Source of the DNA: Gordius sp. MW1
Lineage: Eukaryota > Nematomorpha > Gordioida > Gordea > Gordiidae
Direction: 5' to 3'
Assembly: GCA_964036665.1 (NCBI GenBank)
Contig: OZ038528.1
Location: forward strand, 25,531,245 to 25,595,244
Length of the DNA: 64,000 nucleotides
Shown: one piece after another, positions 32,275 to 64,000 of the stretch
How the letters are laid out: each line of letters opens with the position of its first letter
Numbering within the stretch: the first letter of the stretch is position 1
Program-made: the position numbers and the translations under genes
Notes under the pieces: model-generated
Told to the model about the DNA's origin: nothing
Seen by the model: the letters and a program-made list of their open reading frames with translations, nothing else
The model's database searches: none

Positions 32275-32295
32275 TTGGTGACCGTTCAACGTGAT
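32275..32295 (+). promoter_or_regulatory. Primer binding site of the CsRn1-like element
   Basis: TTGGTGACCGTTCAACGTGA follows the LTR directly. TGGTGACC and ACGTGAT fit the complement of a tRNA-Trp 3' end, with mismatches in between. Confidence 0.6.
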
Positions 32296-33123: not shown

Positions 33124-34457
33124 CTGACCTTTCCATTCAGGCGACTTCCGGAAACGGTCATAAACCAAGTCGCCTATTCTACATCATTGATCATACGTCA
33201 GGACATAAGTTTTTGATTGACACAGGAGCTGACGTGTCCATCATTCCAAGACCCGTCAATTCACCTAAGGTACCAAATGGTCCAGTATTGCAGGCGGCCA
33301 ATAATAGCAATATCTCTACCTATGGACAAAAGATGTTGTCCCTCAATCTAGGTCTGAGACGCCCAATACAGTGGTTATTTCTGATCGCCGAGGTACACAC
33401 CCCTATCATTGGAGCCGACCTCTTGCACCAATACAACATCATCGTAGATGTCAAAAACCAGCGATTAATTGATGGTCTGACTCACGTAACTTCAAAAGGA
33501 ATTTCCACCCATCATCAAACGTTAGGAATCCGCATAGCTCTCTCGAGTCAGGACTCTAAGTTGGAATCTGTGATCAACAACTTTCCATCACTCCTAACTC
33601 CTTTAAATTTCACCCAACAAATTTCAACCAACGACATTTTTCACCACATAGCAACAAAAGGGCCGGCACAATACGCACGCCCAAGGCGACTTACTGCTGA
33701 AAAACTTAATGTTGCTAAGAAAGAATTTGAATATATGTTGGAACTGGGAATCATAAGGAAATCTAAAAGCAACTGGGCGGCACCAATACATTTGGCTGCT
33801 AAAAAATCAGGTGACTGGCGTCCGTGTGGAGATTATAGAGCCTTGAACAAAGTCACCGTACCAGACAGGTACCCAATTCCTCACATTCACGACTTCACAG
33901 CTAACCTTCACGGAAAAGCAATTTTTTCCAAGCTGGATTTAGTTAGAGCCTACCATCACATTCCGGTAGCGCCGGACGACATCTGTAAAACAGCCGTGAC
34001 GACACCATTCGGTCTTTACGAATTCACGAGGATGCCGTTTGGTCTAAAGAATGCAGCTCAAACGTTCCAAAGATTCATAGACGAAGTTTTGCGAGGACTG
34101 AATTACGCCTACGCGTACATAGACGATGTACTTATAGCAAGCGGCTCAGAAGAGGAACACGAGGTACATCTAAAGACCGTCTTGCAACGACTCCAAAAGT
34201 ACGACCTCAGGATCAACCCTGCAAAATGTCAATTTGGAGTGCGGGAATTAGAGTTCCTAGGTCACAAAGTTTCGGCCACAGGTATTTTTCCTTTACCAGA
34301 GAAGATTGAGGCTATTAAAAACTTTGCGACGCCAGTTTCATGTAAACAACTCCGAAGATTCTTAGGCATGATCAACTTCTATCGAAGATTTCTGCCCAAT
34401 ATTGCTCAAATCCTAAATCCGTTGACAGACATACTAAAGAATCCGCAAAATCTATAG
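33075..34457 (+). CDS. pol: Pol part 1: protease and reverse transcriptase
   Basis: Aspartic protease motif [14 protein letters not shown] lies near 33220. The Ty3/Gypsy reverse transcriptase follows, with [41 protein letters not shown] and the catalytic YIDDV near 34115. The frame ends at a TAG at 34455-34457, just after the [13 protein letters not shown] motif. The continuation of pol is in another frame from this region, so a single indel between about 34420 and 34450 breaks the polyprotein. Confidence 0.9.
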
Positions 34458-39960: not shown

Positions 39961-40131
39961 GACACCTTATGTAAATATTAATATTGAGGGTATCAATTTG
40001 AGTTTTCTTATTGACACCGGTTCCTCTATTAGTATTATGTCGCGTAAAACTTTTTTTATTAATAAAGTTAATATAATTGCCAAACAATTCGATGGCACTA
40101 AGATAAATTTATTAGGTAATACTAGGTTCTA
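39961..40131 (+). CDS. Retroviral-type aspartic protease segment
   Basis: Encodes PYVNINIEGINLSFLIDTGS and continues to SISIMSRK. The active-site motif is LIDTGSS. A good acceptor (TTTTTAATTCTTCGCAG) precedes it directly. The frame stops at about 40131, and pol continues in a different frame, so a frameshift or splice is needed to join them. Confidence 0.65.
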
Positions 40132-40149
40132 ATATGCGTAGCAGAGGTA

Positions 40150-42963
40150 ATGGTAAAATTGGAATTATATGTAATTGAAGATAAAATTGATAATATAATG
40201 GGATGGAATTGGATTAGGATTTTGGGTCCTATTACAAATTGGTGGGGAATATGTAAACTAAGTAATGTTGATAATTGTAAAATGGATTGTATTAATGTTT
40301 TGAGGGAAATGCCAGAGAATTTAGACACTACAAAACCGGGTATTTACAGGCCGCTGAACTCAGATGTTGAGTCAGCCTTGATTTTTGGGGCACTGAACTC
40401 AGTTAATGAGTCAACCTCGGTTTATGAGGAACGAGATTCCTTGGTTTCGGTAAGTGGTGTCAATAGGTATAAATTTGAATTATGGCATATTAAAATTGAT
40501 AACATTAAAAAGAAATATAACGAAATTTTTAATGAAGAATTGGGTTGTTTAAATAATGTAATGTTTTCCATACGTGTGGATTCTAATGCTGTACCACGTT
40601 TTTGTCCTGCTAGACGCATTCCATTAATGTGGAAAGATGAAGTGCATCAAGTTTTAGATAAGTGGCTTAAGGATAACGTAATAGAACCAATTGAATTTTC
40701 GGAATGGGCCACTCCCCTTGTGCCAGTTAAAAAGAGTGATGGTACTATTAGAGTTTGCGCTGATTATCGCGTAACAATTAATAAATGGGTAATTGATGTT
40801 AAATATCCTTTGCCTAGATTAGAAATGGTTTTAGCTAACTTGAAGGGTAGTAGGTACGTTTCAAAGCTAGATTTAGCTAATGCTTATCTTCAACTTCGCG
40901 TAGATGAAAAATCGGCTAAGTTGTTAACAATTATCACGGATAAAGGTCTCTATTCTTTTAAGAGATTACCTTTTGGTTTAAGCGTGTCCGCTCCTATTTT
41001 TCAAAGGGCGATGGCATCTATATTTAATAATATAGATGGTGTATTTTTTTATTTGGACGATATTTTAGTTACTGGTTCAACTCAGGACGAACATGATTTA
41101 CGTCTAGAGAGAGTATCAAATTTGATTAAAATTAAAAATTTACGCGTTTCTGCTAAGAAATGTAATTTCGGTACTGACCAGGTAATTTATTTAGGTCATG
41201 TAATAGCAGACGGTTTTGTTAAACCTAATTTAAAAAAGGTACAAGATATTAAAAATATTAATAGACCAGTTGATAAAAAAGAACTTGCATCGTTTTTAGG
41301 TTTAATGAATTATTACAGTAAATTTATTGAAAATTATACAAATTATTCTGGTCCTCTTTATGAGTTAACTAAAAATGATGTTTTATTTAAATGGGATGAT
41401 AATATATATAAATGTTTTAATTTCTTGAAAAATATTTTATTAACGGATCCGATTCTTAAATGTTTTGATCCTGATAAAGAGCATATTTTGAAAGTAGATG
41501 CATCCAACACAGGTATTGGTGGTGCTTTATGTCAGATAGAAAACGAAATAGAGCATCCGGTTATTTATTTTTCTCGCAAACTTTCTAAGGCTGAACTTAA
41601 TTATTCAGTCATAGAGAAAGAAGCTCTTGCGATGGTTTATGGTTTGAAACGTTGTCGAGAATATTTAATTGGCAAAGCATTTACATTGTATACTGATCAT
41701 AAGCCATTGGTAGCTTTATATGATAAAATTAATACGGAATTTTTAATGTCACCTCGACTTCAGAGATGGTTATTAACTCTGGATAATTTTTCTTTAACTT
41801 TAAAATATCGAGAAGGTAAAAATAATCATTTGGCTGATGTGTTATCACGAATGAGTGCAAATAATATAACTAAAGAGATATCGGTTACAAATAATAACGT
41901 TGTTAATGTAATAAAAGTCATCGATCTTGACGATATTGTCAAAAGTACTGAAAATAACGCTGATTTAGCGGATATTAAACAAATTATTACAGGTGTTAAA
42001 AATATTCAAAATGTTCCTGTAGATTTTAAACATGTAATTAAAGAACTATATATTGAAGATAATTTAGTTAAACGCAATGATAAACTAGTAATTCCTTTGG
42101 AACTGGGTAGTAATGTTTTAAATATTTTGCATGAAGGGCATGCAGGTATAGTAAAGATGAAGGAGCTAGCTAGACTATATGTCTGGTGGCCCAAAATTGC
42201 AAAGGACGTTGAGATCTATGTTCGGCAATGTGCTATGTGTAAATTAAAAGCAGCCATGCCACCTAGGGATAAAAAGGCTCGATGGCCTCGTGCAGATGGT
42301 CCCTGGAGTAGAATTCATATCGATTTTTTTGAATTTAATAAAAAGAGATATATATTAGTGGTAGATGCATATTCAGGTTGGACTGAATTTAAAGTAATAC
42401 ACAATATATCTACAAAGGTTACGGTAATGTTTTTAAAAGAATTAATTGGCGCATACGGTTTTCCCAAATTTATAGTAACCGATAACGGAAAAGCGTTTAC
42501 AAGTGTCGATTTTAAAGATTTTTGTGATAATTGGAAAATAACGCATTTTTTAACGCCGCCATATCATCCTAGTTCTAATGGACAAGTTGAGAGATATGTG
42601 TCTATTGTTAAGAAATGGTTAGAATTGGCACAAACTAATAAAGAGGGTACATGGTTATGTCGGTTATACCATAACATGACACCTAGATTTAGACGGTTGC
42701 CAGTTGGTATAGAATTTTTTAGTCGTAATTTACGTTTTCCGCCTGATTTTTTGCTGGATAGCAAATTTAAACATCAGTTAACGGGCAAGACCAGATATAA
42801 TATTAATGATATAGTATGGTCGAAAATTTATTTAGGTCAACCTAGATGGATATTATCTAAAGTTGTTGATCATATAGGTAATAAAATTTATAAAGTTAGG
42901 TCATTAGAGACTAACAAGATAGAAACTAGGCATGTTGAACAACTCTTAAGTTATTCTGCCTAA
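40150..42963 (+). CDS. pol: Pol polyprotein (RT, RNase H, integrase) of the Mag-like element
   Basis: 937 codons without a stop. The RT motifs are FCPARRIPL, VCADYRVTINKW, VSKLDLANAYLQLRV, RLPFGLSVSAPIFQRAM and YLDDILVTG. RNase H shows LKVDASNTGIGGALCQ, YSVIEKEALAMVYGL and YTDHKPL. Integrase has HEGHAGIVKM with CAMCK (HHCC finger) and the catalytic D, D, E in IHIDFFEF, VTDNGKAF and NGQVERYV. All key residues are in place. The N-terminal stretch has a few direct repeats around ALNSV/PLNSD. The ORF is strongly AT-rich, in contrast to the ORF after it. Confidence 0.92.
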   Translation: MVKLELYVIEDKIDNIMGWNWIRILGPITNWWGICKLSNVDNCKMDCINVLREMPENLDTTKPGIYRPLNSDVESALIFGALNSVNESTSVYEERDSLVSVSGVNRYKFELWHIKIDNIKKKYNEIFNEELGCLNNVMFSIRVDSNAVPRFCPARRIPLMWKDEVHQVLDKWLKDNVIEPIEFSEWATPLVPVKKSDGTIRVCADYRVTINKWVIDVKYPLPRLEMVLANLKGSRYVSKLDLANAYLQLRVDEKSAKLLTIITDKGLYSFKRLPFGLSVSAPIFQRAMASIFNNIDGVFFYLDDILVTGSTQDEHDLRLERVSNLIKIKNLRVSAKKCNFGTDQVIYLGHVIADGFVKPNLKKVQDIKNINRPVDKKELASFLGLMNYYSKFIENYTNYSGPLYELTKNDVLFKWDDNIYKCFNFLKNILLTDPILKCFDPDKEHILKVDASNTGIGGALCQIENEIEHPVIYFSRKLSKAELNYSVIEKEALAMVYGLKRCREYLIGKAFTLYTDHKPLVALYDKINTEFLMSPRLQRWLLTLDNFSLTLKYREGKNNHLADVLSRMSANNITKEISVTNNNVVNVIKVIDLDDIVKSTENNADLADIKQIITGVKNIQNVPVDFKHVIKELYIEDNLVKRNDKLVIPLELGSNVLNILHEGHAGIVKMKELARLYVWWPKIAKDVEIYVRQCAMCKLKAAMPPRDKKARWPRADGPWSRIHIDFFEFNKKRYILVVDAYSGWTEFKVIHNISTKVTVMFLKELIGAYGFPKFIVTDNGKAFTSVDFKDFCDNWKITHFLTPPYHPSSNGQVERYVSIVKKWLELAQTNKEGTWLCRLYHNMTPRFRRLPVGIEFFSRNLRFPPDFLLDSKFKHQLTGKTRYNINDIVWSKIYLGQPRWILSKVVDHIGNKIYKVRSLETNKIETRHVEQLLSYSA

Positions 42964-48300: not shown

Positions 48301-50573
48301 ATGACTGGAAAAAAGAGATCGGAAAATGGAATTAACCACGAGGCAGGTAGCCGTAAAAAGATTTAAATGCATTGTATGACAACTTTAAAATTTGTGCAGG
48401 AAACCGAACAACCGAACTGTTAGATAGCTCGCCCGATCATAGCAAAGTAACTTTCGGTGGGGTTGAAGGATTTGAAATAGTTGAAGTTACCAAATCAACT
48501 TGGTTACAATACCTAAAATTTACACTATGCCACATCGGGTTAATTCTGATCTTAATTGGCTTTACTGCCGCAGGCGCTTATGTCTTTTCTATTATGGAAC
48601 ACCCTCACGAGGTTAGCATCAAAAATCACAAACTATCTCAATTGAGTCAAATGGAGAGGAACTTTATCAAACTTATAATGCTTTGTCGAACTAATGACTC
48701 TCAACTAATAGAGTTGGCGAAGGTCAAAGATAAGCAAGATTCCTTGCATTTGCATAGCAATGTTATGGATTATAACCAAGATCCTGTTCCTTATTTAGAA
48801 TGGCTCGACAGTCAAGACAGTAATTGCATCTAAATTGTAATTTGTAGCATATATTATGTAGAAGAAGATCATGAAAAAGTGGATCAATTGTTTTATCAAG
48901 CTAGAAGCCAACTGCACGAATACGCAAGTTTATTGTTGAATAGTGCTAAATATTTTGAGGTAAATAATGGAAGCATTAGACAGGCCCCTAATTTATGGAC
49001 GCTTAAAAAAGCGATATTTTTCGCAGCGACAGTCATTAGCACTATAGGTAATGGTAAGACACACGCATGCACACATTTCACTTTTACCTATAATTGACTG
49101 TAAAATGATTATAAAACTTTTTTGTGTATACAATGATGTTTATCAATGTCAACAAAAAATTATTAACTTTAAACTAACGCGCTTATAGACTTTCTGCTTC
49201 ATTATATTGTTCCGGACCTAAATTTACATTTACGCAAGTGTATTATTTACTTTGTACATATAAAATAGAAAAATTTCGAATTCCATTTTTGTCATTACTA
49301 TAGGTTATGGAAACGTGGTGCCCGTCACTACATATGGCCAAATATTTTGCATGGGCTACGCTCTATTTGGAATTCCTTTACTTTTATTAGTTGTGACCGA
49401 TTTGGGAACTTTATTTTCAAAGTTTATCCTTCTCGTCTGGATCAAATTTAGTAAGACTGTGGAACGCAATGTCGTTAGCATATTCCGTTTGCAAAATAAT
49501 CAAGTGATTCATAAAGTGACCGAGAGAGTAAAGGTGCCAAAGCACGATTTCAAATTGCCAATTTGGTTGGCTTTCTTATTACTTGGCCTCTATATAGCGA
49601 TGGGAGCTGGGTTATTCTTACTTTGGGAGCAATGGACATTTTTTCAATCTTTTTACTTCGTATTCATTACCATGACAACCATTGGTAAACATATACATAT
49701 TTTTAAAACATTCGTTTAAGATCTTTTTCTTCACTTTTCTCCTAAAATTCATTTGCTAAGGAGTATTAAAAGCATTATATACAAAATTTAAGTGTAACAA
49801 GCTATAGTACCTTTTATATAATATGGTCGAACATAAGTTTATTGATTAGTTGGGAAATGTCATACGGCACCGGGTGTGTAAATTGATATTCCACATGAGT
49901 TTGAAAAAAAGTATTCTTCGACTCAACTTTTTATTCTATTATTGGCACGCACCTAGGGGCTAATTAACTTTTTCAATTACTACCAAGACCCTTGGTTGCA
50001 AATTTATATTATTTATGCACAAATTCTGATTAATGTAGTACAATGCCTTAATATAAAAACCATTAAACTATCTGACGGACGCTATTTGATCGATTCATAT
50101 TTTACGAATGTTTTATTCAATTAAATAAATCATAACGTTTATTTTAAAATATGCATATTAATGTTGCTTGTTTTCATCGAAGTTTTTTTGTTATTCTGAA
50201 TGGAACAATATATTGCAAGGATGTTTAAATAAATATTATTGATTTACAAGCTAAAACTATTCATGTATTAATAGGATTTGGCGACATCGTTCCAAAACAC
50301 ACCACATATTTGCTGTTAATGACGATATATATTTTGATCGGTTTCGCTGGTATGACAACTTGTGTTCAACTTGTTTTACACACCTACATTGATAGGCTAA
50401 AAAATTTGCGACAGCATGTTGAGGTAGTAGCTGCCAAAACGGGTGAAGGTGCAGGAAATTTTACCAAATATCTTACTCAAAGTGACAATATGAAAAAGTT
50501 CAATAAAACCAAAGATCGCAACAAAATATATGAAAATTGTCAACCTCGGCATCTCAAAGAAACGTCGCTTTAA
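48301..50573 (+). CDS. Two-pore-domain potassium channel (K2P), five exons
   Basis: Membrane channel for background K+ current, active as a dimer. Exons are 48301-48346, 48400-48819, 48862-49047, 49304-49684 and 50275-50573. All introns are GT-AG and phases agree (443 residues). The ATG at 48301 was chosen because the second exon has no Met and an acceptor precedes it at 48399. The 46-nt first exon brings the right phase. Seen in order: TM1 (LILILIGFTAAGAYVF), a long extracellular cap region, pore 1 with TIGYGN split by an intron, TM2, TM3 (IWLAFLLLGLYIAMGAGLF), pore 2 with TIGFGD also split by an intron, TM4 (LMTIYILIGFAGMTTCVQLV) and a Lys-rich tail. Both filters are intact. One intron is only 42 nt. 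The subfamily (TWIK/TASK/TREK) cannot be fixed from this alone. Confidence 0.92.
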
Positions 50574-51239
50574 ATATTCGATACTCTCGTTAAAAAATTT
50601 AGTACCTTATATTCTCGTATAGTTTATAATTGTGCAAATAAATTAAAAATTGTAAACTGACTAATTTAAAACCAGGTAACACCTAAAAAGTTAAATGTTA
50701 TTTTAATTATATGTCTTTGAGTGGTAAACATTAAGAGCTTATGATATTTTGCTTGTGCTTTAAGCACATGTTTAATTTTTGAATTTTCAACTCTATTAAT
50801 TAACATGACTAATGATTTCCATTTAAATATAATGTTTAAAAGATACAAACAAATAGTGATCAAGAATTCATGGAGCCAAATACTTAATAGAGTGTCATAA
50901 GGTCAAACTTTATAAATTGGTTCAGACCATAATGGATTTTAGGAAATCTTAACAAGCATTTCGACATAGTGCTGCATTATTGCCTATTCGGATATAATAG
51001 ATGCTTGAATTATAATTGCTTGTGATAACGCTGTACTAATATGCAACCATAACTGTTAGTATTGCATGAAAAAATGTATGAATAATGACTCTACATTATT
51101 TTATAGAATATATTAATTAATTCAGACTTGATTAATGTTTTTGAATAATATTATAAATTTTTTTTTCATATGAAATTCGGAAGCATTAATGAATTAAAAG
51201 TAATAGAACGTTAATGTTCTTTATTAGAGCATTCAGTTA
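50574..51239. other. Gap between the K2P and lectin-Ig-Sushi genes
   Basis: Holds a candidate poly(A) signal (AATAAA at 50636-50641) for the channel and, further on, the likely promoter of the next gene. Nothing coding seen. Confidence 0.5.
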
Positions 51240-54200
51240 ATGGTTATCTTCCAAGTTACCTTATTTATCTTATACATCCTCGTTATAAATTATTGTTCAG
51301 GACACCCAAATATTACAAGTAACTCTCATACTAATTTACCAACAAAATTACTAGTTGCAATCAAAGATTTAAAAATATCACTATATATCGGAAGATTGAA
51401 TGGAGTTGAGAAAGGAGAATATATAAAGACTTCTTCTTGTCTTCATATTAATGATCCAATGGATTATTGGATTTTTGATTTAAATGATTTCTACCAAATA
51501 GATTCCATAACGTTCAATGCAAGTATTATAAACTAATTTATCAGCTAATAACTTGGCAACGTTTTAGAAAATTCAGTATTGAACGATTTAGATGTGTTTG
51601 TGGGAGTAAATTTATACGGAAAGAATAATGAAAAGTGTGAAAGAGTTGTTTGGCAAACAAAAGTTAATCTTAATTGTCACGGAACCCTAAGTCGCTATAT
51701 AAGTTTTCATTTGACACAAAGCATCGCTATTAATTACATAATTATTTGCGACTTGGAAATTAAAGGAAATAAACATAATTTAGGTCCGTCATTCGGCATA
51801 ATGTTTATTTAACAGATTAATCTCTAAATTTTTATGTTCCAGTTTATAATTTTTAAAAGGTTTTTATTTGTTTAGATAATTTATCCTTCAAGCCTAATGT
51901 CAAAGTTTTAGAAAATCGAAAAATTTCAAATACTAAAAACATTATTGATGGACAATATGCCAATAATGATGACTTCATACCGCTAACGTGCATGTAATTT
52001 TTTTCAATGTTATTAAAATGTTGAAATACTTAATAATTTGTAATTGCTAGCGCACTCAAAAAATATTCTGAGAAAAATATTTATTTTTGAAAAATAGCAT
52101 CATTGAAAATAATACGACACTTTTTAAACTAATTTTTGATATGTTTGTGCAATTACATAATTCAGAAAAACAATCAGATCGCCTCAACCCAAAATATTAT
52201 TGGACTTGGACCATTTGTATCTTATCCATTATGTTCGAATTCAAAATACTCCATGTGTAATTGATTGTATGTAATGCTACTTCTATTATAAAAATAACTG
52301 ATAATTATAAAGATCCAGATCTAACAAATGTTAATATTGGAATTGGTTACACCAAGAAACTGATAAATCATGTTATATGTCATCAAATAGAGGATTCGTC
52401 TCCGGGAGAATTACATACATTTTGGTGTGGATCAAGTAACAACATAGGCTTAGCCAGGGCTAATCTTCAAATTTTACAAAATTATGACCAAAATTACTTA
52501 AAATTATCATTTTGCCTGTGCCTATTTTATTATTGCCCCCACCCCCCTTAATCTTAGATACGCCCATGAGAAAGAATCTATCATGATTATAACAAATAAG
52601 TTTAAGGCTCATAAAAATTTTGTTTGTCATTTTATTGCTATAATTTGAGATTTCTAATAATATATCGCTTGATTACCAAGTAAAGAAATGTAAGAGGGGT
52701 AAATAGCAATAAGTGCGTTGCTCCAAACCTTGAATAAATGTAGCCAAGGGGAGGCCCCGGAATTATTATAAAAATTGCAGAAAAACATTTTTTGGCCTCC
52801 CCAATACTGCTCCTCTTGAGTTCAAATCCTGACTACTCTCATGTTGAGGACATAATATATAACACTTTATTGAACAACTGCATGACCAAAATATTGTATA
52901 TTTCTACATCTAGAGAAACGATCATTATATTATCCAATTAGAGGTAGATGGATTAGTCTATACAAGGATATAAAGGATGATTTAAGGTTCGACGAATTCA
53001 GCCTTTGTGAAATCGAAATCTATGGAATTCTGCTTGAAAGATCGAGTATGAATTTAGTATATATTTTACTTGATCGTTGTAAGGCAATGTAGCTATCAAC
53101 AAAGCGACACATGCTACTCCGGCTTTAAAGAGTAACCAGAAATCCGTAATCAACGAAATTCATTCTGGTTTAGCTGTGGATGGCATCTATAATCCCTATG
53201 ACGGGATCAATTCATGTTATATTTCTTCTTGGTCAACTGCACCTTTTTGGACACTTGATTTAGGACACATTTATGAAGTCTATAAGGTGTTTGAGCTAAT
53301 GTGTTAATTAAATTTCATTTTAATCGAGATTGGGGTGCTAGATAATGTAGTATAAGATGATGTGAAATTGATAAGTTAGCCGAGAGGGCGTGTTAGTTTA
53401 CAACTTTACCTAATATTTGTATGATTGTATATGAGTTTGCGTTCAAAAATATCCAATGGGGCTAATATTTAAGTGTAAAACTAGTATAAACTTAGACCAT
53501 TTATTAAAAAAAACCATTTTAAAATAAACATATGATTTCACAAGTAATGTGTTATAATTAATTTTACCGCTTACAACAAATTTGATCGAGCATCTTCAAT
53601 TAGCGCAAAAAGATTGAGCAAAGCAACATATTTGAATCATTATCCATCTTTATTGAGAGGGGGTACTATTTATTGAAGGTAAATAATAAAGTGAGGGAAA
53701 AGAAAAGAATTCGTAAGTAATAAAGAAGTGAACACTTCTTTATATAATCTCGAGCTAATCGAAATAATACATTAAATCAATTAACATTTAGTGGTGAATC
53801 CTTGAGCTATATGTGATAATAGTTGCGAAGCAGTATGCTCGAGTTATATAAGATAAAATAAATGAGTCAATTAAAGTTTCGGAGTAGACTTAAGTAATAT
53901 GCCGCGAGCAATCCATTAAATAGTAGTGGTTACTACATCTTAATGAAATTGCCTACTGCTAAACTTTAAGTTAATGCTAATATAATTCACAATTGTATAT
54001 ATCGTAATTCGTTGGTTTTTTTTTAAACTTATAAATACTTGCAATAATTACCATTTAATTTTATTATTGTGTATGTGAACACTAAAATTTTTATATACCA
54101 CTAATAGTAAAATTGCTAAACTTAGAGATAGAATATTATATTTGTAAAAATATTATAAATTTGTTTTATCTTTTAAGCACAATTTTTATAAGCATGGCAT

Positions 54201-57200
54201 CCCCAAATGTTGGGAGCTGTATAATCCGCAATTTTAAAACAAATTCATTACTGATATTTGTTCAAATATATAAAGTTGGTGTTTTCTTTTACATAAGCTT
54301 TTTTATATTTATAATAGGTTGTAATTATAGCGACACACGTTTATCATATTTCTAGCAGAAAATCTCAACACGTAAAGGAGAATCTTCACTTAACATGTAT
54401 GTAGCTTTACTCAATTTTTATGATACTATTATTAACTCTATAAAATTATTCAGCTTTTAAATGCGTGCTTTATCAAAATAAATCTGTAATTTTTTCACCC
54501 CATAGGGAAGAGCTTGGCTAATGCTATAATAAGTGTTCACATGGAAAAGAAATTGCTTGGAAAGCCAGTTTGTAACTGGATTAACGAAGCGGAATTATAT
54601 CAAGGAGTTATTATTCAAAAATATTGTTTTAACCCTTTACGCGGTATGTATGTGTCAATAAACACACCTGCTGACTCCTATGGTCAACCTTTACAAATGA
54701 CTCTTTGTGAAGTTGAAGCATATGGCAATAGGACTCCTTTCAAAAGTAGGTGGGCGCAAATTTATATCGTGCAGCTATTATATGAAATTTAAATATGACT
54801 TTTTATTCTCTCAAAAAAATGGGCAAAAATATGATAGGTGAATATTAAAATTTGGTAACGACTTAAATTAGGATTTAACTCAATAACAAACCTTTTTGGC
54901 TTATGTGTGTTGTTAAACCGCATCATTAAACATATGCATTCAAGTAGTCAAGAATTTTCAATCCGTTTATATAAATGTCATTGTTTAAAGTCGGTGTATT
55001 TGGATTGATAGCGTAGGTAGAGGGAAATGGAACGCGATATTTCCCTCTACCTACGCTATCAATCCAAATACACCGACTTTAAACAATGACATTTATATGC
55101 ATCCAAGTTTTTTAAATCCATTCGAAACTCTTGTTAATGTCATATTGCCTATACGCATTATTAGAATCGTATCCTTTCATTCAACCCTATGAATCAAGGA
55201 CTATACACGCATTACTAAATGATTCACGGGATCTGGAATGTAGCGTTAAAGGAAATAAACAATTATATTGGTTAGACTCAAAAGGGGAAAAATATGAACA
55301 TACCTTCCCTACAAGATTAAAATACAAATACGATAAAATTAGCAACGTTACATTATTCAAAATCAGGATTGCTTTTAAAACCGTTGGAATTCTGCATTTT
55401 AAGTGCTGTTATAAGACTGTGTGCAGTATAGCCATAAGATTAGTTATTAAAGGTATAGCCCTATTTATTTGAAATTGTATAGGAGTTGATTTAAATTAGA
55501 TAGGGTATATTTGTCTGTTCCAACTCATATCGTTCACCACCAAACACTAACGCCAAAACGATTGCATATACTATGCATTTGGTTAGGAGGGGTTCCAGTT
55601 CCATCCCTTTACATAGTTATTAATACTAAGTAATTAAATATTATACAAAAATATACAATCATGCATAATTAAAGGACGATAAATTGTTTTCAAAACATAC
55701 CTGAAGGAATGCTGCCAGATGAATACTTTTACTCTATGAAACATCATTCGTGCTATATCTACATAGACTATACCTATAATGGTGTTTACAATGTAGCCTG
55801 TAAGGCCATTCAGCTTAATCAAACTTCAACATTCGGAAAATTAATAAGTGTAAAAGGTATATTAAAAACTAATATAATATACAATTTTATAGACGATATT
55901 GAGTTATACCTAAGTCCTGCCACGAAAAACTATGAAATTCATTTGCTTAACAAACGCTCATTTGAGATCAAATGTTCTATCAACGATGACAATCTTGAAT
56001 GGAGGTATAGTATATGGAAAGATGGGAAACTTGTAGAAAAAAGTATAGGATCGGGCATCAAATTAAAATTAGACCCGGTCGATAAAAATCATGCAGGAAC
56101 TTACGAGTGCACGGCTCATTCACCATTTACTAAAATTCAAAAACGATTTAATCTTATTGTCCATTGTAAATTAATTATTATATATATCCATTATTAATCT
56201 CTTACAGATATTCCCGATGATGGTGTTATTCAAGACTCAAATATTCATTGTCTTCCGCCAACTTTACCCTCGGATTATAAAGTATTAATAACTTTTAGAT
56301 TGATCTTAACTATTAAAGGTTGAGTGGTATGACAGTAATCAAAGCTTGTTAACTAGTAGTAATTTAATAAACGCAACTAACCATCATCACACATCTTTTT
56401 TAAAATGTAGAGCCAATATATTTATGCGTCATGCTGATGAATATATGAAACATAACATGACTTTCTTTTATCAAAGTGGTAAGTCTAATTTTAACAAAAT
56501 AATTAATTAAAATATCCGAAGGTGAAGGTAAAGTGTCACGTATTCGTAGAGACTTTTCGATTGAAGAAGGTGATCCGGTAATTAATGATAAGGATAAACT
56601 AAATCAAAAAGAAAATCAAATTATTTATCATAATTCTTCGACGCTCGACCTCTACCTTCATATCAATTCAAAAATGGTTTTAAATTGCAGTGTTAAAGCA
56701 GTGACTGAAAAAGTAGAGGGAGAAAAATTAAGATTTTTTTGGATGAAATATGGAACCAAAGATGATCCTCAAATGTTATCTCAATATACTGGAGCTAATT
56801 TGATAATATCTTCCGTTAAAATACTAGACACCGGCTTATACTATTGTCATTTAGACAGGGGCAATATGCAAAAATCTTTAGCCGACTCTAAAAAAGTCCT
56901 CGGGCGATTTAACATAACCATTTATCGTAATAATAATTAAAATATATTTATACCTATACCAAATGTTTGGGTTTATGAGATTACGTTAAACTTACTCAAT
57001 AATAGAATCGCCCATTATAACTATAAAGAGTCAAGATATGGGAGAAATATCATTCAAATCTGAATGCCTAGTTGAGGCCAACCCTAAACCATTTAACGTA
57101 GAATAAACATATTTTCAATGATAAATGCAATTTAGGTGTATTGGATTAGTAGGGAAACTTCAAAAATCATTCAAAGTTCGATATTAAAGGATCTAACGTC

Positions 57201-60055
57201 CAAAGATAACGGTGAATGGGGGTGTATCGCTAGTATGACCATTTATAGAAAAGCTCCTTTTGATCCACTTAATTTTACAGCGAAAGCTTTTACTCACGTT
57301 ACGATAGGAAAAGGTAGGAAGGTTAATTATTGCAAACGTATAAATGTTGATAGGCATAAAGGAGATAAACATTGCGGGTTCATTTAATAGATCATACGGA
57401 GTTGAAGAAAAATCAGACGTTATATTGTATTACAATCAATCATCATCCCAATTAAATAGTGGAACTTATGAGTGGCAAAAAAATGGAAGATCTAACGATA
57501 ACAGTAATAACTTGCTCAAGTTATACAACGTTAAATCAAGCGATTCTGCTGTATATCAAGTCTTGCTAAGAGGCACCACTTTAGGAAGAATTGATTTAAA
57601 AGTTTTATGTAAGGTTTTGTTGAATTAATAAAGTTTATTTTAAGTCATATAACTTTTTATAAATAAAATCAAGATGGACCTACGGTTGAAACAAATTCAA
57701 ACGTTGGCCCGCCCACCCAACAAGAAAATGGTGTGCCAGTTTTTGAAATTTCTGAGATGAAAGTTCTTAAAATCTCTGCCAACGTGACATCCTATGCTGA
57801 ATTTAATGTAACGGATTTGTATATACATTAAAACTTTGCTATTTATCTGAACATTTTCAAAATTTAAAATATATATGAATACAAGTATTTGAAAAACATA
57901 CAAACAATTTTTAATATAGATTAGTTGGGCGAAACATGGGAGTAAACATCCAATTGCTCAAAACCAAGAAATGACATTTCCTAAAGTTACTAAAGAACAC
58001 AATGGAATATATGTTTGTATAGTAACGGTTAATGAAATAAAATTTGAAACATACTATCCAGCTAGAACTCGTTCCATATATTTTGAGGTTAAAGTGAAAA
58101 GTAATTTCTACTGTTAAATTTGCATAAGCTAAAAGTTCTATACAATTGTATCTAACTTGTATTTACAGCCGAAGGTTGCTCACCCTTTAATTTCCCGGCT
58201 TTGAAACTAAATAGAGTAGGCTCCGACTATGGGAACGAGCATAATATTGTTCCATACGGAAAGATTATATCGTGGAACTGTATGACTAAAGACGATATGA
58301 TTGGTTCAAAAACAAGCATTTGTCAGCCGAATGGCGAATGGGACAACCTCCCGCCTTATTGTGGTTCGCACTTATTTAAATCGACAAAATGTTATAAGCT
58401 GCTAACCCTATGTCTTCATAATAAAACAAAATAACTAATTGAATTAGGGTGTCCATTACCTAACGTTGAAAATGGCCAGGCTTTAGTTCAAAACGGAGAA
58501 GTCTTTATTGTGTGCAACGATGGGTTTAACGCGATGAAAAGTGTTTCAAAACTCGAATGTATAAATGGAAATTGGAACATACCACCACAATGTAAAAAGA
58601 GTAAGTCGCATTATTCGCACTATCAGACAGAAACATTTTAAAGGTTGCCTAGATACCGTAAATAAAGGAATCATATATATGCACGACCATGTTAAATGGG
58701 AAAAGTGTTTGATGGATAAAATTACGGGAAATATAAAGTATAAATGTAATAATGGTCAATGGTCTAGAGAATCCAGCTGTGTTAAAGGTTATTTTGAAAG
58801 CACTCATAAACTAAATTACAATGCAAAGATAATAAATTTTGTTTTTATAATTACCTTAGGTTGCACAATTCCATACATTATAAATGGTTATAGTGAAGGT
58901 AAAATTTATGAGCAATGCTTAAATTTATTCCACAAAAGATGCTAGTGAAAACGATATCTTGAATAAAACAAAAGAATCCATGCCAGATATAGAAAAGCTT
59001 AAGGGTAATGCAACTGGTTCACGAGCTAAAGGAATATTGAGACCTGCACTGATCAATAATATACCTAGGTAAGGGTATAGACAAGTTAGTTGTAGTTACG
59101 AGATAACAAAAGGAAATTATTTAAAGTAACATACCCAAATTAGGCGATAAAATTAAAATTAAGCAGGATTATGCAACAATTTTATTTAAAAAAATTACCT
59201 ATCAGTTAAATTATTTGTCTTGAATATATAATTCCTCATATGTTTCCATATAATATGATTATTAAAAAGATTAACATTATTAAAGGCATAGGCGCAGCCA
59301 GGGGGGGGGGGGGGCAGGGAGAGGCGGCTGCCCCCCTCTAAATCCAATTTGGCTAAAATTTCAAATGATCATTTTGATCCCCCCTAAATCATTATTACCC
59401 CCCCCCCCTCTAATTCCAATGCTGGCTACGCCCATGATTAAAGGGTCTGCCTTAAATTTCTTTGTATGTATAGAGATTCAGCAAAGCGACCAAAAAGAAC
59501 AGATAACGATAATATAAAAGTCAACAATAAAATGGTAAAGATTTGGTGTTCCTCATAGTTTATGGAATAATAAATAATTTAGGATAGAAATAACAATCTT
59601 AATAATCCGAATAGTAAATCGGGTCGTAATAATGAGAAGAACACTGATCAAACTGGGTCCCGTATAAAATTTAATAATAAAAATCAGCCTTTAGATGAAT
59701 TGGACTTAAAGACACCGAATACCAAGGATAAAGATGTCGCATCTTATGTTCCTGGTGACAAATTGAAGGTTGTCTGTCAATCGTCTTATGAAATAACGGG
59801 AGATTCTATAATAACGTGTCAAGACGACGGTACTTGGAGACCGAAACCACTTTGCACATCGGGTATGCGCCATCTATTTATTAAATTAATTTTTCATACT
59901 TAACTCTACACACGTTTTTATAGCCTGTATTGCTCCTTTGGGAAATTTCAAGAATGGTAGTATATTCACTCCAAATTGTGAAGGACCTAAACGAGCACAG
60001 GATATCAAATGTGCAGATCTTCCTAATCCAAAATCCAATAAAGCTTGTAGCGAGA
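51240..60055 (+). CDS. Secreted fucolectin-Ig-Sushi protein, 30 exons, 3' end unresolved
   Basis: Large extracellular recognition protein. Exons: 51240-51522, 51568-51783, 51876-51993, 52166-52254, 52319-52435, 52914-53045, 53093-53286, 54318-54396, 54506-54745, 55165-55452, 55500-55581, 55675-55856, 55893-56165, 56208-56281, 56319-56478, 56522-56926, 57006-57097, 57136-57313, 57354-57608, 57674-57818, 57925-58100, 58169-58363, 58448-58600, 58644-58787, 58860-58898, 58939-59004, 59086-59125, 59474-59534, 59583-59862, 59924-60055. The model gives about 1629 codons with agreeing phases. Most domain borders are phase 1, as in shuffled modular genes. A signal peptide (MVIFQVTLFILYILVINYCS) starts the protein. 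Three fucolectin domains, about eight Ig-like and five or six Sushi modules follow. No TM helix is seen. The last donor (GAGA then GTGAGT) leads into repeats: a tiny terminal exon near 60128 or exons beyond the window are both possible. Exons 54318-54396 and 55500-55581 are the least sure. An immune or adhesion role is inference. Confidence 0.8.
52443..52568. mobile_element. MITE family A copy in a lectin-gene intron
   Basis: Ends CATAGGCTTAGCCAGGG and TAGATACGCCCATG. It starts right after the donor of exon 5, so it lies in the intron 52436-52913. Confidence 0.65.
52736..52843. mobile_element. Decayed MITE family A copy in the same intron
   Basis: TGTAGCCAAGGGGAGG at the left and CCTGACTACTCTCATG at the right. 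Shorter and more diverged than the other copies. Confidence 0.5.
54969..55098. repeat. Perfect inverted repeat, 60-bp arms, 10-nt loop
   Basis: Left arm 54969-55028 and right arm 55039-55098 are exact reverse complements by my reading. The loop is GGAACGCGAT. It lies in the intron between the last fucolectin exon and the first Ig exon, and a transcript through it would fold into a 60-bp duplex. It matches nothing else in the window. Confidence 0.9.
55165..58100 (+). other. Ig-like domain region of the modular protein
   Basis: About eight Ig-like modules. Typical G-strand motifs are NGVYNVACKA, HAGTYECTAHS, DTGLYYCHL, DNGEWGCIAS and HNGIYVCIVT. Several modules are cut by an internal intron just before the conserved Trp (NPKPFNV then YWISRE; SDYK then VEWYDSN). 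The seventh (57354-57608) lacks the Cys pair but keeps a Trp and SDSAVYQV. An RIRR sequence near 56540 could be a furin site. Confidence 0.75.
58169..60055 (+). other. Sushi (CCP) region of the modular protein
   Basis: Four-Cys modules as in complement regulators. GCSPFNFPAL ... WDNLPPYC, GCPLPNVENGQA ... WNIPPQC and SCLDTVNKGII ... WSRESSC are complete. A module split over three short exons has GCTIPYIINGYSE and KLKVSCSYEITKG. A later exon has KLKVVCQSSYEITGDSIITC and WRPKPLC after an Asn/Lys-rich spacer. The last begins ACIAPLGNFKNGS. Confidence 0.75.
59287..59436. mobile_element. MITE family A copy in a lectin-gene intron
   Basis: Starts CATAGGCGCAGCCAGGG with a long G run and ends GCTGGCTACGCCCATG. 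It lies in the intron 59126-59473. Confidence 0.8.
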
Positions 60056-60145
60056 GTGAGTAAAAATGGGCATTATATTGTTAAGCATGATTCTACAAAG
60101 CTTTTGATGACTATATTATTAAAAAGAAATGTATAATTAATTATA

Positions 60146-60320
60146 CTCGGGCCTTCGGGCCTCGTGGGAAGGGGAAGAGGGGAATGAGTAGGGGAAGGGA
60201 AGGGGGCAAGGGAAGGGGGAACTCTTCTATACTCCGTATAAACGTAGCATATTTGCTAAGCAATTTATGGGCGAGAAAGGTGGGAATGGGCGAGAATGCC
60301 TATAGGGGGTATTAAATGCA
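60146..60320 (+). repeat. Duplicated segment D, copy 1
   Basis: ACTCGGGCCTTCGGGCCTCG followed by a GGGAAGGGG-rich run, then CAATTTATGGGCGAGAAAGG and a GGGGGTATTAAATGC end. The same order occurs at 61021-61193. Confidence 0.7.
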
Positions 60321-60519
60321 AAATAATTAGTTATAGGCCCTTGTAGGGGAGGGCATATGGTAATTATCAATGTTAACCAATTTAAAAACGAAAAAAAAAT
60401 TCGATTTATTTGGCCAATGGTCATTTTTTCCATTGGTCAGTAGCTTGCGGACGATCAAAAAGTCATATTATCAATGGTATTAGAACAAAATATTAATTTA
60501 ATTAAAAAAAATTTTGCCC

Positions 60520-60610
60520 CCTCCGGGATTCGAACCCACATCAGTAGAGGCATAGGCCTTTTGTAGGGGCACAGGGACCCATATCAGTAGAGGCATAGGC
60601 CCTTGTAGGG
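60520..60610 (-). repeat. tRNA-like (SINE) fragment with B-box
   Basis: On the minus strand GTGGGTTCGAATCCCGGAGG forms a T-arm with a perfect RNA polymerase III B-box (GGTTCGAATCC) followed by a T run. The preceding D-arm and anticodon region is not tRNA-like, so this is a SINE-type remnant, not a tRNA gene. Confidence 0.45.
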
Positions 60611-60802
60611 GAGGGCATAGGGTAATTATCAATGTTAACTAATTCAAAACGGAAAAAAAAAGTTCGATTTATTTGGACAATGGTCATTTTTTTCATTGGT
60701 CAGTAGCCAGCGGACGGCCAAAAAGTCATATCATCAATGTTATTAACAGGAACAATATATTAATTTAATTTAAAAAAAATAAATAAAAATAAACAGTGAA
60801 GG

Positions 60803-60842
60803 GTAACGGACAACGGACAACGGACAACGGACAACGGACAAT
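60803..60842 (+). repeat. (ACGGACA)n microsatellite
   Basis: About five units of a 7-bp GGACAAC repeat. Shorter versions of the same run occur near 62655-62685 and 63770-63810, always next to the AAACGAGCCCATAAATTGC end. Confidence 0.75.
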
Positions 60843-61020
60843 TAAAAATCAAAAACGAGCCCATATAAAAAACGAGCCCATAAATTGCATAGCAATTAAA
60901 AGAACTATTTATTAGAATATTTAGTACAAAGATGCGGATTGATATTTGGAAGATTAAAATAGATTCAAAATATGTTTTGAAATTTTTTTAATTCGTTCTT
61001 ATAACAAACTATATTCAAAA

Positions 61021-61193
61021 AACTCGGGCCTTCGGCCCTCGTGGGAAGGAGGAGAAGGGAAGGGAAGAGGGGAAGGGAAGGGGGGACGACTCATCTGTAC
61101 TTCGTATAAATGTATTATATTTGCTATGCAATTTATGGGCGAGAAAGGTGGGAAGGGGCGATAATGCCCATAGGGGGGTATTAAATGCCTAAT
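61021..61193 (+). repeat. Duplicated segment D, copy 2
   Basis: Same order as 60146-60320, including TTTGCTATGCAATTTATGGG and CATAGGGGGGTATTAAATGC, with scattered differences. Confidence 0.7.
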
Positions 61194-62261
61194 GATTAAT
61201 TAATTATTTATACAAATTTTCCATTTATAGGCAAAATGTAATATAGGCAAGGGTTAGGGTTAGATTTAGTGTTTGCATCTAGTTGCGTATTACATTAGTT
61301 TTTATGGCCTTTATTGATTATGGGTCTAACAAACATTATATTATAAAACATCACAATGTTAAGAATTTGCAGAATTGTTGGGAAAAATTTTTGTTGAATT
61401 TGAACAATTTTTAATTAAAAAAATCAAAAATTTGGCGAATGGTCATTTTTTCTCCATTAATCAGTACCAACAGATACTCTATAAGTCAATGATAGCCAAA
61501 AAAACGGAAAAAAAAATTTGATGCTCACTTTGGCCAATGGTCATTTTTTTCCTTGGTCAGCAGCCAGCACACGGTAAAAATGGATATAAATTCATGAGAG
61601 AAAAAAAACGAAAAGAAAATTTTTGAATCACATTTTGGCCAATGGTCATTTTTTTCCATTGGTCAGCAGCCAGGACACGGTAAAAGTGGAAATAAATTCA
61701 TAATAGTCAAAAAAAACGAAAAAAATGTTTTCGAATCACATTTTGGCCAATGGTCATTTTATTCCATTGGTCAGCAGCCAGCGGACGGCCAAAAAGTCAT
61801 AATAGCAATGGTAGGAACAGGAACAATCATAAAAGTCAAAAAAAACGAAAAAAATATTTTCGATTCACATTTTGGCCAATGGTCACTTTTCCCATCGGTC
61901 AGGAGCCAGCGGAAGGCCAAAAAGTCATAATAGCAATGGTAGTAACAGGAACAATCATTATAGTCAAAAAAAAACGAAAAAATAAACTCGAATTCACATT
62001 TTGGCCAATGGTCATTTTTTTCATTGGTCAGCAGCCAGCGGACGGCTAAAAAGTCTTATTATCAATGATAGTAACAAGAACAATCATAAGAGTCAAAAAA
62101 ACTCCGGGATTCTAAATTAAAAGTAAACAACTTTTATTTATGTTTATTATATAATAAAATGAAACAATAATAGAACAAGCGGACGGCCAAAAAGTCATAT
62201 TATCAATGGTAGTAACAGGAAAAATATATTAATTTAATTTAAAAAATAAAAAAAAATTTTG

Positions 62262-62330
62262 CCATCTCCGAGAATCGAACCAGCAATTCAGAACGTTCGC
62301 CGGGGTTCGAACCCACATTAATAGAGGCAT
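62262..62330 (-). repeat. Two tRNA-like T-arm fragments
   Basis: Minus-strand GTGGGTTCGAACCCCGGCG and CTGGTTCGATTCTCGG are two B-box-like T-arms in a row. They look like the piece at 60520 and are read as SINE remnants. Confidence 0.4.
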
Positions 62331-62379
62331 AGACTTTTGTAGGGGCACAGGGACCCATATCAGTAGAGGCATAGGCCCT

Positions 62380-62714
62380 TGTAGTGGAGGGCATAGGGTA
62401 ATTATAACAATTAATATCAATGTTACCCAATTCAAAAACAAATAGATATACTTATGCATTAATTTAACATAGCAATTAAAACCCGACCCCGCCCGAAAGC
62501 GAGGGAGATAGAGATGAGGGGTGGGGCACCTCTTATGCATAAATTTTAAAAATAACACAGCGAGGGAGATAGAGATGAGGGGTGGGGCACCTCTTTCTCA
62601 TGCATTAATTTAAAAAATCGATAACCTAATATACCCAATGTAGCTAGGGAGGGACGGACAACGGACATCAACGGACAACCAAAAACGAGCCCATAAATTG
62701 CATAGCAATTAAAA
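62380..62714 (+). repeat. Duplicated segment E, copy 1
   Basis: Matches 63488-63840 over nearly its whole length, including a doubled AGCGAGGGAGATAGAGATGA block followed by GGGGTGGGGCACCTCTT, and the closing CGAGCCCATAAATTGCATAG. Confidence 0.85.
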
Positions 62715-63487
62715 TTCTTGATTAACATTTAGGTCAATGGTCATTTTCTTCCATTGGTCAGCAGCCAGTGGACAGACAAAAGCCATATTATCAATGTAAC
62801 AGGAATAATCATAATAGTCAAAAAAAAAACGAAAAAAAAACTTGGATTCACATTTTGGCCAATAGTCATTTTTTTCATTGGTCCGCAGCCAGTGAACGGC
62901 CAAAAAGCCATTAGCAATGGTAGTAACAGGAACAATCGTAATAGTCAAAACTAAAACGAAAAAAAAACTTGGAATCACATTGGCCAATGGTCATTTTTTC
63001 CATCGGTCAGCAGCCAGCGGACGGCCAAAAAGTCATAATAGCAATGGTAGTAACAGGAACAATCATAATAATAAAAAAAAAACGAAAAAATAAACGGATT
63101 CACATTTTGGCCAATGGTCATTTTTTTCATTGGTCAGCAGCCAGCAGACGGCCAAAAAGTCATAATAGCAATGGTAGTAACAGGAACAATCATAATAGTC
63201 AAAAAAAAACGAAAAAATAAACTTGGATTCACATTTTGGCCAATGGTCATTTTTTCTTTGGTCAGCAGCCAGTGGACGACCGAAAAGTCGTATTAGCAAT
63301 GGTAGTAACAGGATCAATCATAATAGTAAAAATAAAAAGAAAAAATAAACTTGGATTCACATTTTGGCCAATGGTCATTTTTTTCATTGGTCAGCAGCCA
63401 GCAGACGGCCAAAAAGTCTTATTATCAATGGTAGTAACAAGAACAATCATAAGAGTCTAAAAAAACTCCGAGATTCTAACCCAAACC

Positions 63488-63840
63488 CTTGTAGTGGAGG
63501 GCATAGGGTAATTATAGCAATTAATATCAATGTTACCCAATTCAAAAACGAATAGATACACTTATGCATTAATTTAACGTAGCAATTAAAACCCGACCCC
63601 GCCCGAAAGCGAGGGAGATAGAGATGAGGGGTGGGGCACCTCTTATGCATTAATTTAAAAAATAACACAGCGAGGGAGATAGCGATGAGGGGTGGGGCAC
63701 CTCTTTCTCATGCATTAATTTAAAAAATCTATAACCTAATGTACCCAATGCAAATAGATAGGGAGGGTAGACAACGGACAACGGACGGACGACGGACTAC
63801 GGACAACCAAAAAACGAGCCCATAAATTGCATAGCAATTA
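63488..63840 (+). repeat. Duplicated segment E, copy 2
   Basis: Second copy of 62380-62714. Because a run of the tandem array lies between them, the whole block (array plus E) was probably duplicated as one unit. Confidence 0.85.
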
Positions 63841-64000
63841 ATTAAATAATAACAAAAAGAAAAGTAAAATAAGTATTTCAAAAGGCTAGAAAAACTCTTA
63901 TATTATTAACTAATTACCTTATAAGAAAACTTAAAATTTTTAGCTACAGATAAACATGTAATTTATTTCCTTTGCATTTAAAGCATATTATAATTTTACA

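What the first reader, a model, noticed from the sequence alone, without database searches (positions are those of the whole stretch)
51240..60055. Undescribed domain architecture: signal peptide, three fucolectin, about eight Ig and five or six Sushi domains in one secreted protein
Seen: 30 exons with GT-AG borders and agreeing phase, and family motifs in every module. Known: fucolectin (F5/8C), Ig and Sushi domains each occur in recognition and complement-type proteins. I know no characterised protein with all three in this order. Inference: a sugar-binding immune or self-recognition molecule, or a matrix protein. The predominance of phase-1 borders fits assembly by exon shuffling.
Basis: partly seen in the sequence, partly recalled or inferred. 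Interest (0 to 1): 0.88.

Follow-up and report, generated by a model that had tools for sequence, protein, structure and literature searches.

The report
Three-lectin, Ig and Sushi membrane receptor
An unidentified animal carries a gene that reads as a large cell-surface receptor, built from three worn lectin-like domains, eight immunoglobulin domains and seven Sushi domains on one membrane anchor, a combination our searches did not find described.

Summary
A 29-exon chain (reader: 30) runs from 51240 to 60055. It scores 152 as coding, against at most 18.6 in 60 shuffles, and encodes a signal peptide, three F-type-lectin (fucolectin) domains, eight Ig modules and five Sushi modules. Ig and Sushi are well above Pfam cut-offs; the lectin match barely is.

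The gene does not stop at 60055. After a 4.5-kb repeat-filled intron, past the window end, come two more Sushi exons, a transmembrane helix, a 108-residue tail with six tyrosines, a stop and AATAAA signals. The product is predicted to be a 1913-residue type I membrane receptor, not a secreted protein. No lectin domain keeps the full fucose-binding triad, so "sugar-binding" is doubtful.

Own-genome probes of four segments found only this locus below E 0.3. Two large protein searches found no relative; the listings and passages seen from seven literature searches show no such architecture. Closest kinds: Drosophila Furrowed and tunicate fester co-receptors. Function, expression and species remain unknown.

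The parts
51240..51302 (+). signal peptide (residues 1-21), start of exon 1
   Evidence: second most hydrophobic 19-residue stretch of the product, mean 2.19; cleavage site inferred
51303..51767 (+). FTLD1 (residues 22-161), exons 1-2
   Evidence: weak Pfam F5_F8_type_C_2 E 0.06; keeps His52 and Lys at Arg79, loses Arg86
51783..53026 (+). FTLD2 (residues 167-304), exons 2-6
   Evidence: no Pfam match, no PDB match for a draft of it; rests on alignment with FTLD1/3 and the IIDGQ...LDLDHLY...LCEIEIYG pattern; triad lost
53045..54726 (+). FTLD3 (residues 311-475), exons 6-9
   Evidence: Pfam F5_F8_type_C_2 28.3 bits, cut-off 27.8 in the full product, 21.7 bits alone; PDB FBP32 E 5.4e-6 and eel lectin 1k12 E 0.12 for a draft; triad lost
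54745..55451 (+). Ig1 (residues 482-577), exons 9-10
   Evidence: C...W...C pattern only; no Pfam match; single-sequence fold uninformative
55452..55855 (+). Ig2 (residues 578-681), exons 10-12
   Evidence: pattern only, no Pfam match; two exons joined by a 45-nt intron
55856..56164 (+). Ig3 (residues 682-772), exons 12-13
   Evidence: Pfam Ig_3 E 3.2e-6, 28.0 bits, cut-off 30, scanned alone
56165..56523 (+). Ig4 (residues 773-851), exons 13-16
   Evidence: C...W...C pattern; at most a weak second Ig_2 stretch in the Ig4-Ig5 piece
56524..56925 (+). Ig5 (residues 852-985), exon 16
   Evidence: Pfam Ig_2 E 1.6e-6, above cut-off, best stretch in Ig5
56926..57355 (+). Ig6 (residues 986-1076), exons 16-19
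   Evidence: Pfam Ig_3 E 3.7e-4, below cut-off
57356..57607 (+). Ig7 (residues 1077-1160), exon 19; both canonical Cys lost
   Evidence: Pfam V-set stretch 1095-1146, E 6.2e-8 for the Ig7-Ig8 piece; 0 Cys
57608..58099 (+). Ig8 (residues 1161-1265), exons 19-21; one canonical Cys lost
   Evidence: Pfam Ig_3 E 1.1e-10 for the Ig7-Ig8 piece, best stretch in Ig8; 1 Cys
58100..58449 (+). Sushi 1 (residues 1266-1331), exons 21-23
   Evidence: 4 Cys; PDB factor H E 8.3e-15 for Sushi 1-3; weak donor GTTCGC at 58364
58450..58599 (+). Sushi 2 (residues 1332-1381), exon 23
   Evidence: 4 Cys; covered by the factor H match
58600..58861 (+). Sushi 3 (residues 1382-1430), exons 23-25
   Evidence: 4 Cys; covered by the factor H match; weak donor GTTATT
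58862..59861 (+). Sushi 4 (residues 1431-1599) with a long N/D/K-rich insert in its first loop, exons 25-28
   Evidence: Pfam Sushi best stretch 1559-1597; 4 Cys in 169 residues
59862..60054 (+). Sushi 5 (residues 1600-1643), short and without Trp, exons 28-29
   Evidence: 4 Cys, 0 Trp
60056..64000 (+). first 3945 nt of intron 29 (60056-64540, 4485 nt), with minisatellite repeats; the gene goes on beyond the window: Sushi 6 exon 64541-64738, Sushi 7 exon 64782-64976, TM exon 65014-65124, tail exons to stop 65576 (locus L007: 586-783, 827-1021, 1059-1169, end 1621)
   Evidence: L007 adjoins the window (overlap checked); exons and phases; repeats

Best explanation
One gene of 35 exons (51240 to 65576, the last six exons beyond the window) encodes a 1913-residue type I transmembrane receptor: signal peptide, three F-type-lectin domains, eight Ig modules, seven Sushi modules, one membrane helix and a 108-residue cytoplasmic tail. 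Shown from sequence: an open, in-phase chain that scores far above shuffles; the Ig and Sushi modules as classes; one hydrophobic helix followed by basic residues; stop and poly-A signals. Inferred: it works as a cell-contact recognition or adhesion receptor. The lectin-fold tip and the Ig modules bind a protein or glycoprotein ligand on another cell or in the matrix; the Sushi modules form the membrane-near stalk. Ligand binding would lead to phosphorylation of tail tyrosines (YGNF and YANV fit the Y-x-N form that Grb2-type SH2 domains read, recalled knowledge; YANV also fits Y-x-x-V). Classical fucose binding is unlikely because the binding triad is lost.
For: Coding score 152.4 against at most 18.6 in 60 shuffles, and the downstream piece 64400-65700 32.2 against at most 8.3 in 20 shuffles. 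All 34 introns GT-AG, 26 phase 1; 18 of 18 module borders have a phase-1 intron. Pfam Ig_3 6.5e-25, Sushi 1.9e-22, F5_F8_type_C_2 28.3 bits. FTLD3 (a draft) to FBP32 E 5.4e-6. Four Cys in 7 of 7 Sushi modules, two of them beyond the window. Only two stretches of the product reach a 19-residue hydropathy mean above 2: the N-terminus (2.19) and 1782-1800 (3.08). The open frame of the Sushi 6 exon has no ATG upstream of the Sushi, so it needs an upstream exon; its phase fits exon 29. AATAAA at 65578 and 65616 after the stop. Own-genome probes of FTLD3, Sushi 1-3 (both listed to E 0.001), TM-tail (to E 10) and Ig1-5 (to E 1) return only this locus below E 0.3.
Against: No transcript was seen. Exon choices were settled by eye with the expected modules in mind, so phase agreement is not independent. 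Four donors are weak (GTCCGT after exon 2, GTGTTT after exon 7, GTTCGC after exon 22, GTTATT after exon 24). Intron 29 is 4485 nt while 28 of 34 introns are 36-112 nt. FTLD2, Ig1 and Ig2 have no database match; Ig7 has lost both cysteines. The unguided fold of the Ig1 exon showed a helix rather than strands in its second half, at pLDDT about 40-52. Tail motifs are short and could be chance: no ITIM, and the Pfam SIT match at E 0.04 is below its cut-off. Other 9-kb stretches of this genome score up to 119.9 in the same control. Nothing tested ligand or signalling.
Confidence: 0.6

Rival explanations
1. Immune or allorecognition receptor: the same molecule, but its task is to tell self from non-self, in the manner of tunicate fester co-receptors (Ig, Sushi, membrane helix, tyrosine tail).
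For: FcoR are type I proteins with V-Ig, Sushi, two C2-Ig, a helix and a long tail with ITIM, hemITAM or core Y-x-x-I/L/V motifs (PMC12065747, passages). This protein shares the module kinds, and YANV fits the core motif. F-type lectins often serve recognition (PMC5712786).
Against: FcoR are a multigene family (53 loci); here own-genome probes of four segments found one locus below E 0.3. No ITIM in the tail by eye. Canonical fucose recognition residues lost. No polymorphism or expression data.
Confidence: 0.25
2. Two or three neighbouring genes rather than one, for example a lectin protein ending before 55165, an Ig-Sushi protein, and a separate Sushi-membrane protein after 64541.
For: Introns 9 (419 nt) and 29 (4485 nt) are long for this gene. 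An ATG-led open stretch (MSYCLYALLESYPF...) begins just before Ig1 in the frame listed from 55116. A stop lies directly behind the donor at 60055 (at 60061) with ATTAAA at 60118.
Against: Phases match at both joints. The stretch before Ig1 is a poor signal peptide by eye, and intron 9 holds a 60-nt perfect hairpin just upstream (54969-55098). The open frame at 64541 has no ATG upstream of its Sushi. In the spliced product the strong hydrophobic stretches are only the N-terminus and the helix at the end.
Confidence: 0.2
3. A decaying or poorly constrained gene whose lectin part no longer functions.
For: Three lectin domains without the full binding triad, one without any database match, Ig7 without cysteines, a large insert in Sushi 4.
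Against: No stop in the 1913 codons of the spliced model; all seven Sushi modules keep four cysteines. Triad replacement is also described in the Drosophila protein CG9095 (PMC5712786).
Confidence: 0.1

Closest known systems
Furrowed and CG9095 (Drosophila; F-type lectin, C-type lectin, Sushi repeats, membrane helix)
   Same: F-type lectin, Sushi array and a predicted membrane helix in one protein; [quoted passage not shown] Furrowed acts in cell adhesion and planar polarity (PMC8226959, passages).
   Different: Here three lectin domains, eight Ig modules, and no C-type lectin match in the Pfam scan at E up to 1.
Fester co-receptors (FcoR) of Botryllus
   Same: Type I protein with Ig and Sushi modules and a tyrosine-bearing tail (PMC12065747, passages).
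   Different: FcoR are 520-610 residues, one Sushi between Ig modules, 53 loci, ITIM or hemITAM or core motif; F-type lectins were reported absent in urochordates (PMC5712786, section 16 part 1 of 2). Here 1913 residues, seven Sushi, three lectin domains, one locus found.
Hikaru genki (Drosophila)
   Same: Ig plus Sushi in one protein (PMC9083331, passages).
   Different: One Ig-like and five CCP domains are listed there, no lectin; the review treats it among CCP proteins at synapses.
F-type lectins of fish (FBP32, eel agglutinin)
   Same: FTLD3 is a sequence relative (FBP32 E 5.4e-6, eel lectin 0.12).
   Different: There lectin proteins with a fucose site; here the triad is lost and the domains sit on a predicted receptor.

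Membership tests
F-type lectin family | sequence homology to the F-type lectin / F5-8C fold | tested here: inconclusive
   FTLD3 matches; FTLD1 weak E 0.06; FTLD2 none
F-type lectin family | fucose motif H-X24(26)-R-X-D-X4-(R/K) | tested here: not met
   0 of 3 domains match even with X22-28; a relaxed [RK]-x-[DE] pattern matched once, in FTLD2 from a His at position 93, out of register; by register FTLD1 H/K/L, FTLD2 S/T/P, FTLD3 I/T/S
F-type lectin family | cation motif h2DGx (x = N, D or S) | tested here: inconclusive
   FTLD2 IIDGQ and FTLD3 AVDGI have h2DG but not the listed x; FTLD1 none
Immunoglobulin superfamily | Ig domain above curated cut-off | tested here: met
   Ig_3 87.9 bits, cut-off 30, 5 stretches
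Sushi/CCP proteins | Sushi domain above cut-off, four Cys per module | tested here: met
   79.9 bits, cut-off 20.7; 7 of 7 modules with 4 Cys
Furrowed | F-type lectin plus Sushi array plus membrane helix | tested here: met
Furrowed | C-type lectin domain | tested here: not met
   no C-type lectin family among the 10 families of the full-length Pfam scan at E up to 1
Fester co-receptors | order V-Ig, Sushi, two C2-Ig, helix, tail | tested here: not met
   here all Ig modules precede all Sushi modules
Fester co-receptors | ITIM, hemITAM or core Y-x-x-I/L/V in the tail | tested here: inconclusive
   YANV at 1872 fits the core form; no ITIM by eye among the six tyrosines printed
Fester co-receptors | polymorphic multigene family in one locus | tested here: inconclusive
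   only one locus from probes of four segments, but the search is exon by exon and lossy; polymorphism not testable

The most novel reading that the evidence does not exclude
A previously undescribed receptor class in which three F-type-lectin domains have lost fucose binding and become a protein-recognition tip on an Ig-Sushi stalk that signals through tyrosines, serving contact-dependent self-recognition in an animal lineage not studied for it.
Probability: 0.15. Interest if true: 0.75.

Novelty: new variant of a known kind. Interest (0 to 1): 0.45.

Why it matters
Known receptors join lectin with Sushi (Furrowed) or Ig with Sushi (fester co-receptors). This gene joins all three on one membrane anchor and shows lectin-fold domains kept after the canonical sugar site has gone. 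If transcripts confirm it, it adds an example of how animals assemble large recognition receptors from phase-1 exons, and gives a concrete gene in which to test what F-type-lectin folds bind when they no longer bind fucose.

Tried and rejected
Secreted or matrix protein: rejected after the downstream loci showed a helix and tail. Paralogue family: 11 other places of the genome (C3, C5 twice, C6, C7 three times, C8 four times) were compared with the 1859-residue draft; matches were to Sushi stretches only, best E 7.6e-4, and the C3 and second C5 place gave none. Three of the 11 got a rough gene model: by eye, C6 and one C8 place hold CUB, EGF and Sushi mosaics and C5:938-948k a Sushi array with one Ig; not scanned with Pfam. 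The C5:5.25-5.28 Mb lectin array runs, in the stretches read (5250001-5262394 and 5268001-5278165), towards EGF repeats, with no Ig or Sushi seen by eye; 5262395-5268000 and the flanks were not read. Orthonectid origin: the top zinc-transporter hit (Intoshia) is a tandem duplicate that inflates the score; core identity is higher to a hemichordate, so only 'animal' is claimed. Rfam: 0 matches at gathering scores in the window. Structure prediction of two single Ig exons without relatives gave mean pLDDT 35.5 and 44.6, no usable model. Relatives of the model elsewhere in the 103 kb around it: only chance matches, E 1.2 or more. Earlier exon choices were replaced: false exons at 52749, 55017, 59298 and in 60101-63325 in the mechanical models, and a shorter Ig2 replaced.

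Full report
What is there. The window lies at C2:25531245-25595244 of a 211.8-Mb genome in 12 contigs. A neighbouring zinc-transporter frame (8127 on) matches SLC30A1-type proteins (4264 at E up to 1e-3 among the 7990 scored candidates, 120 listed; the named organisms in the listing are animals), so this is an animal. The phylum is not settled: the best-scoring hit, Intoshia, is inflated by a tandem duplication, and core identity is 74% over 150 residues to the hemichordate Ptychodera.

Gene model. A splice-aware dynamic programme, then a reading by eye for module borders and phase, gives 35 exons from 51240 to 65576 in window coordinates continued beyond 64000. Locus L007 overlaps the window end exactly. 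All 34 introns begin GT and end AG (asserted); 26 are phase 1, 5 phase 0 and 3 phase 2. Twenty-eight are 36-112 nt long; the six longer ones are 184, 405, 419, 508, 1031 and 4485 nt. Each of the 18 borders between modules carries a phase-1 intron; the eight introns of other phases lie inside modules. Because the exon choices were settled with the expected modules in mind, phase agreement alone is not independent proof.

Control. To test chance I used a codon table from other loci (4608 codons) and free start and stop. Region 51200-60200 scores 152.4; its minus strand 24.1; 60 dinucleotide shuffles average 9.8 with maximum 18.6. Four other 9-kb stretches, both strands, score 15.0 to 119.9, the highest being the plus strand of the one that holds the zinc transporter. 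The downstream piece 64400-65700 scores 32.2 against at most 8.3 in 20 shuffles.

Domains. Full-length Pfam scan: Ig_3 6.5e-25 (5 stretches), Sushi 1.9e-22 (4 stretches), F5_F8_type_C_2 2.9e-6 at 28.3 bits against 27.8. Scanned in pieces, FTLD3 reaches E 3.2e-4 (below cut-off), FTLD1 0.06 and FTLD2 nothing. Sushi 1-3 match complement factor H in the PDB at 8.3e-15. Of the Ig3-8 piece, the Ig3 part matches CEACAM1 at 2.1e-4. A draft of FTLD3 matches FBP32 at 5.4e-6. FTLD2 and FTLD3 are 18% and 17% identical to FTLD1. All seven Sushi modules have four cysteines. Ig7 has none and Ig8 has one. Sushi 4 carries a long N/D/K-rich insert, and Sushi 5 lacks tryptophan.

Beyond the window. Intron 29 (4485 nt) contains minisatellites. 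Then come Sushi 6 and Sushi 7, a helix IGGGLLLLLMIIIIITLIV (mean hydropathy 3.08) soon followed by KIRIKKGK, and a tail with tyrosines at 1821, 1837, 1843, 1847, 1849 and 1872. The stop ends at 65576 with AATAAA at 65578 and 65616. This makes the protein a predicted type I membrane receptor. A stop at 60061, just behind the exon 29 donor, with ATTAAA at 60118, would allow a soluble form; this is speculation.

Sugar binding. The family motif is H-X24-R-X-D-X4-(R/K), with His52, Arg79 and Arg86 in eel agglutinin (PMC5712786, passages and part 1 of section 16; the spacing is given as 26 in PMC8226959, passages). No domain matches, even with a spacing of 22-28; a relaxed pattern matched once in FTLD2, from a histidine out of register. 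By register, FTLD1 has His, Lys, Leu; FTLD2 Ser, Thr, Pro; FTLD3 Ile, Thr, Ser. The register was set by hand on the Cys before His52 and on the D-L pair, assuming no gap after that pair. Fucose binding of the classical kind is therefore unlikely.

Relatives. A database search with the 1859-residue draft found 3894 candidates by shared words and none at E up to 10; with the FTLD3 region, 105 candidates and none. The database does hold animal proteins, but the search needs shared 5-residue words and similar length, so distant relatives can be missed. In the own genome, protein probes of Sushi 1-3 and FTLD3 (listed to E 0.001), TM-tail (to E 10) and Ig1-5 (to E 1) returned only this locus below E 0.3; the last also listed two chance-level places at E 0.35 and 0.38. 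Family PF22633 at E up to 10 showed five places: one on C3 (0.0042), three on C5 at 5.26-5.28 Mb (0.0054 to 1.0) and this gene at 1.17, which shows how insensitive that search is for such domains. The three on C5 belong to another large tandem lectin array near EGF repeats.

Literature. Searches of the open library (5.39 million papers) listed no paper describing F-type lectin, Ig and Sushi in one protein. I opened passages of five papers (PMC5712786, PMC8226959, PMC12065747, PMC10707392, PMC9083331) and saw the rest only as listings; one search held 164 papers, of which 20 were listed, and one search held 58, of which 10 were listed. The passage of PMC5712786 on domains that often occur with F-type lectins in eukaryotes names C-type lectin, pentraxin, CCP, transmembrane and FA58C, not Ig (12 of 16 places shown). 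Subscription papers, including Bishnoi 2015 on the prevalence of the domain (cited, not read), are not held. The claim of novelty is limited to this.

Mechanism. My best reading is a contact receptor: diverged lectin-fold tip and Ig modules bind a ligand, Sushi modules space it from the membrane, tail tyrosines signal. The Grb2-type reading of Y-x-N is recalled knowledge. Furrowed is the nearest functional model (adhesion and planar polarity), fester co-receptors the nearest for tail and Ig-Sushi. It is a member of neither: no C-type lectin, and a different order and size.

Verdict. A well-supported gene model with an apparently undescribed domain architecture; a new variant of mosaic animal receptors, not a new category.

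Noticed in passing
C5:5250001-5262394 and 5268001-5278165 of the same genome, minus strand (L038-L042): Another large gene or genes: many tandem F-type-lectin modules, a cysteine-rich stretch that looks like a WSC domain (by eye), and a very long EGF-repeat array with open frames of 793 and 1093 residues. One module has NRNDQKCKCC, close to the canonical RXD and CC, unlike the window's gene.
   Followed up: partly
window 54969-55098: Perfect inverted repeat with 60-nt arms (54969-55028 and 55039-55098, 10 nt between) inside intron 9, like a small inverted-repeat mobile element.
   Followed up: partly
window 32194-36247 and 40126-42963 (+), 28671-31162 (-): Long open frames that look, by eye, like gag-pol type retroelements (plus) and a LINE-like reverse transcriptase (minus); described only.
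   Followed up: no
window 60166-63804: Minisatellites of 108-129 bases with a 257-base double unit, and short AACGGAC repeats, within intron 29.
   Followed up: no
window 48357-50573: Two-pore-type potassium channel exons by eye (GYGNVVP ... GFGDIVP) directly upstream on the same strand, ending 666 bases before the receptor's ATG.
   Followed up: no
C5:928001-958000 (L015-L017), minus strand: A long Sushi array with a single Ig module inside it, by eye reminiscent of Hikaru genki.
   Followed up: partly
C7:14793594-14871682: A dense run of Ig_3 matches with several regularly spaced, equal-scoring ones near its end, probably a titin-like gene.
   Followed up: no
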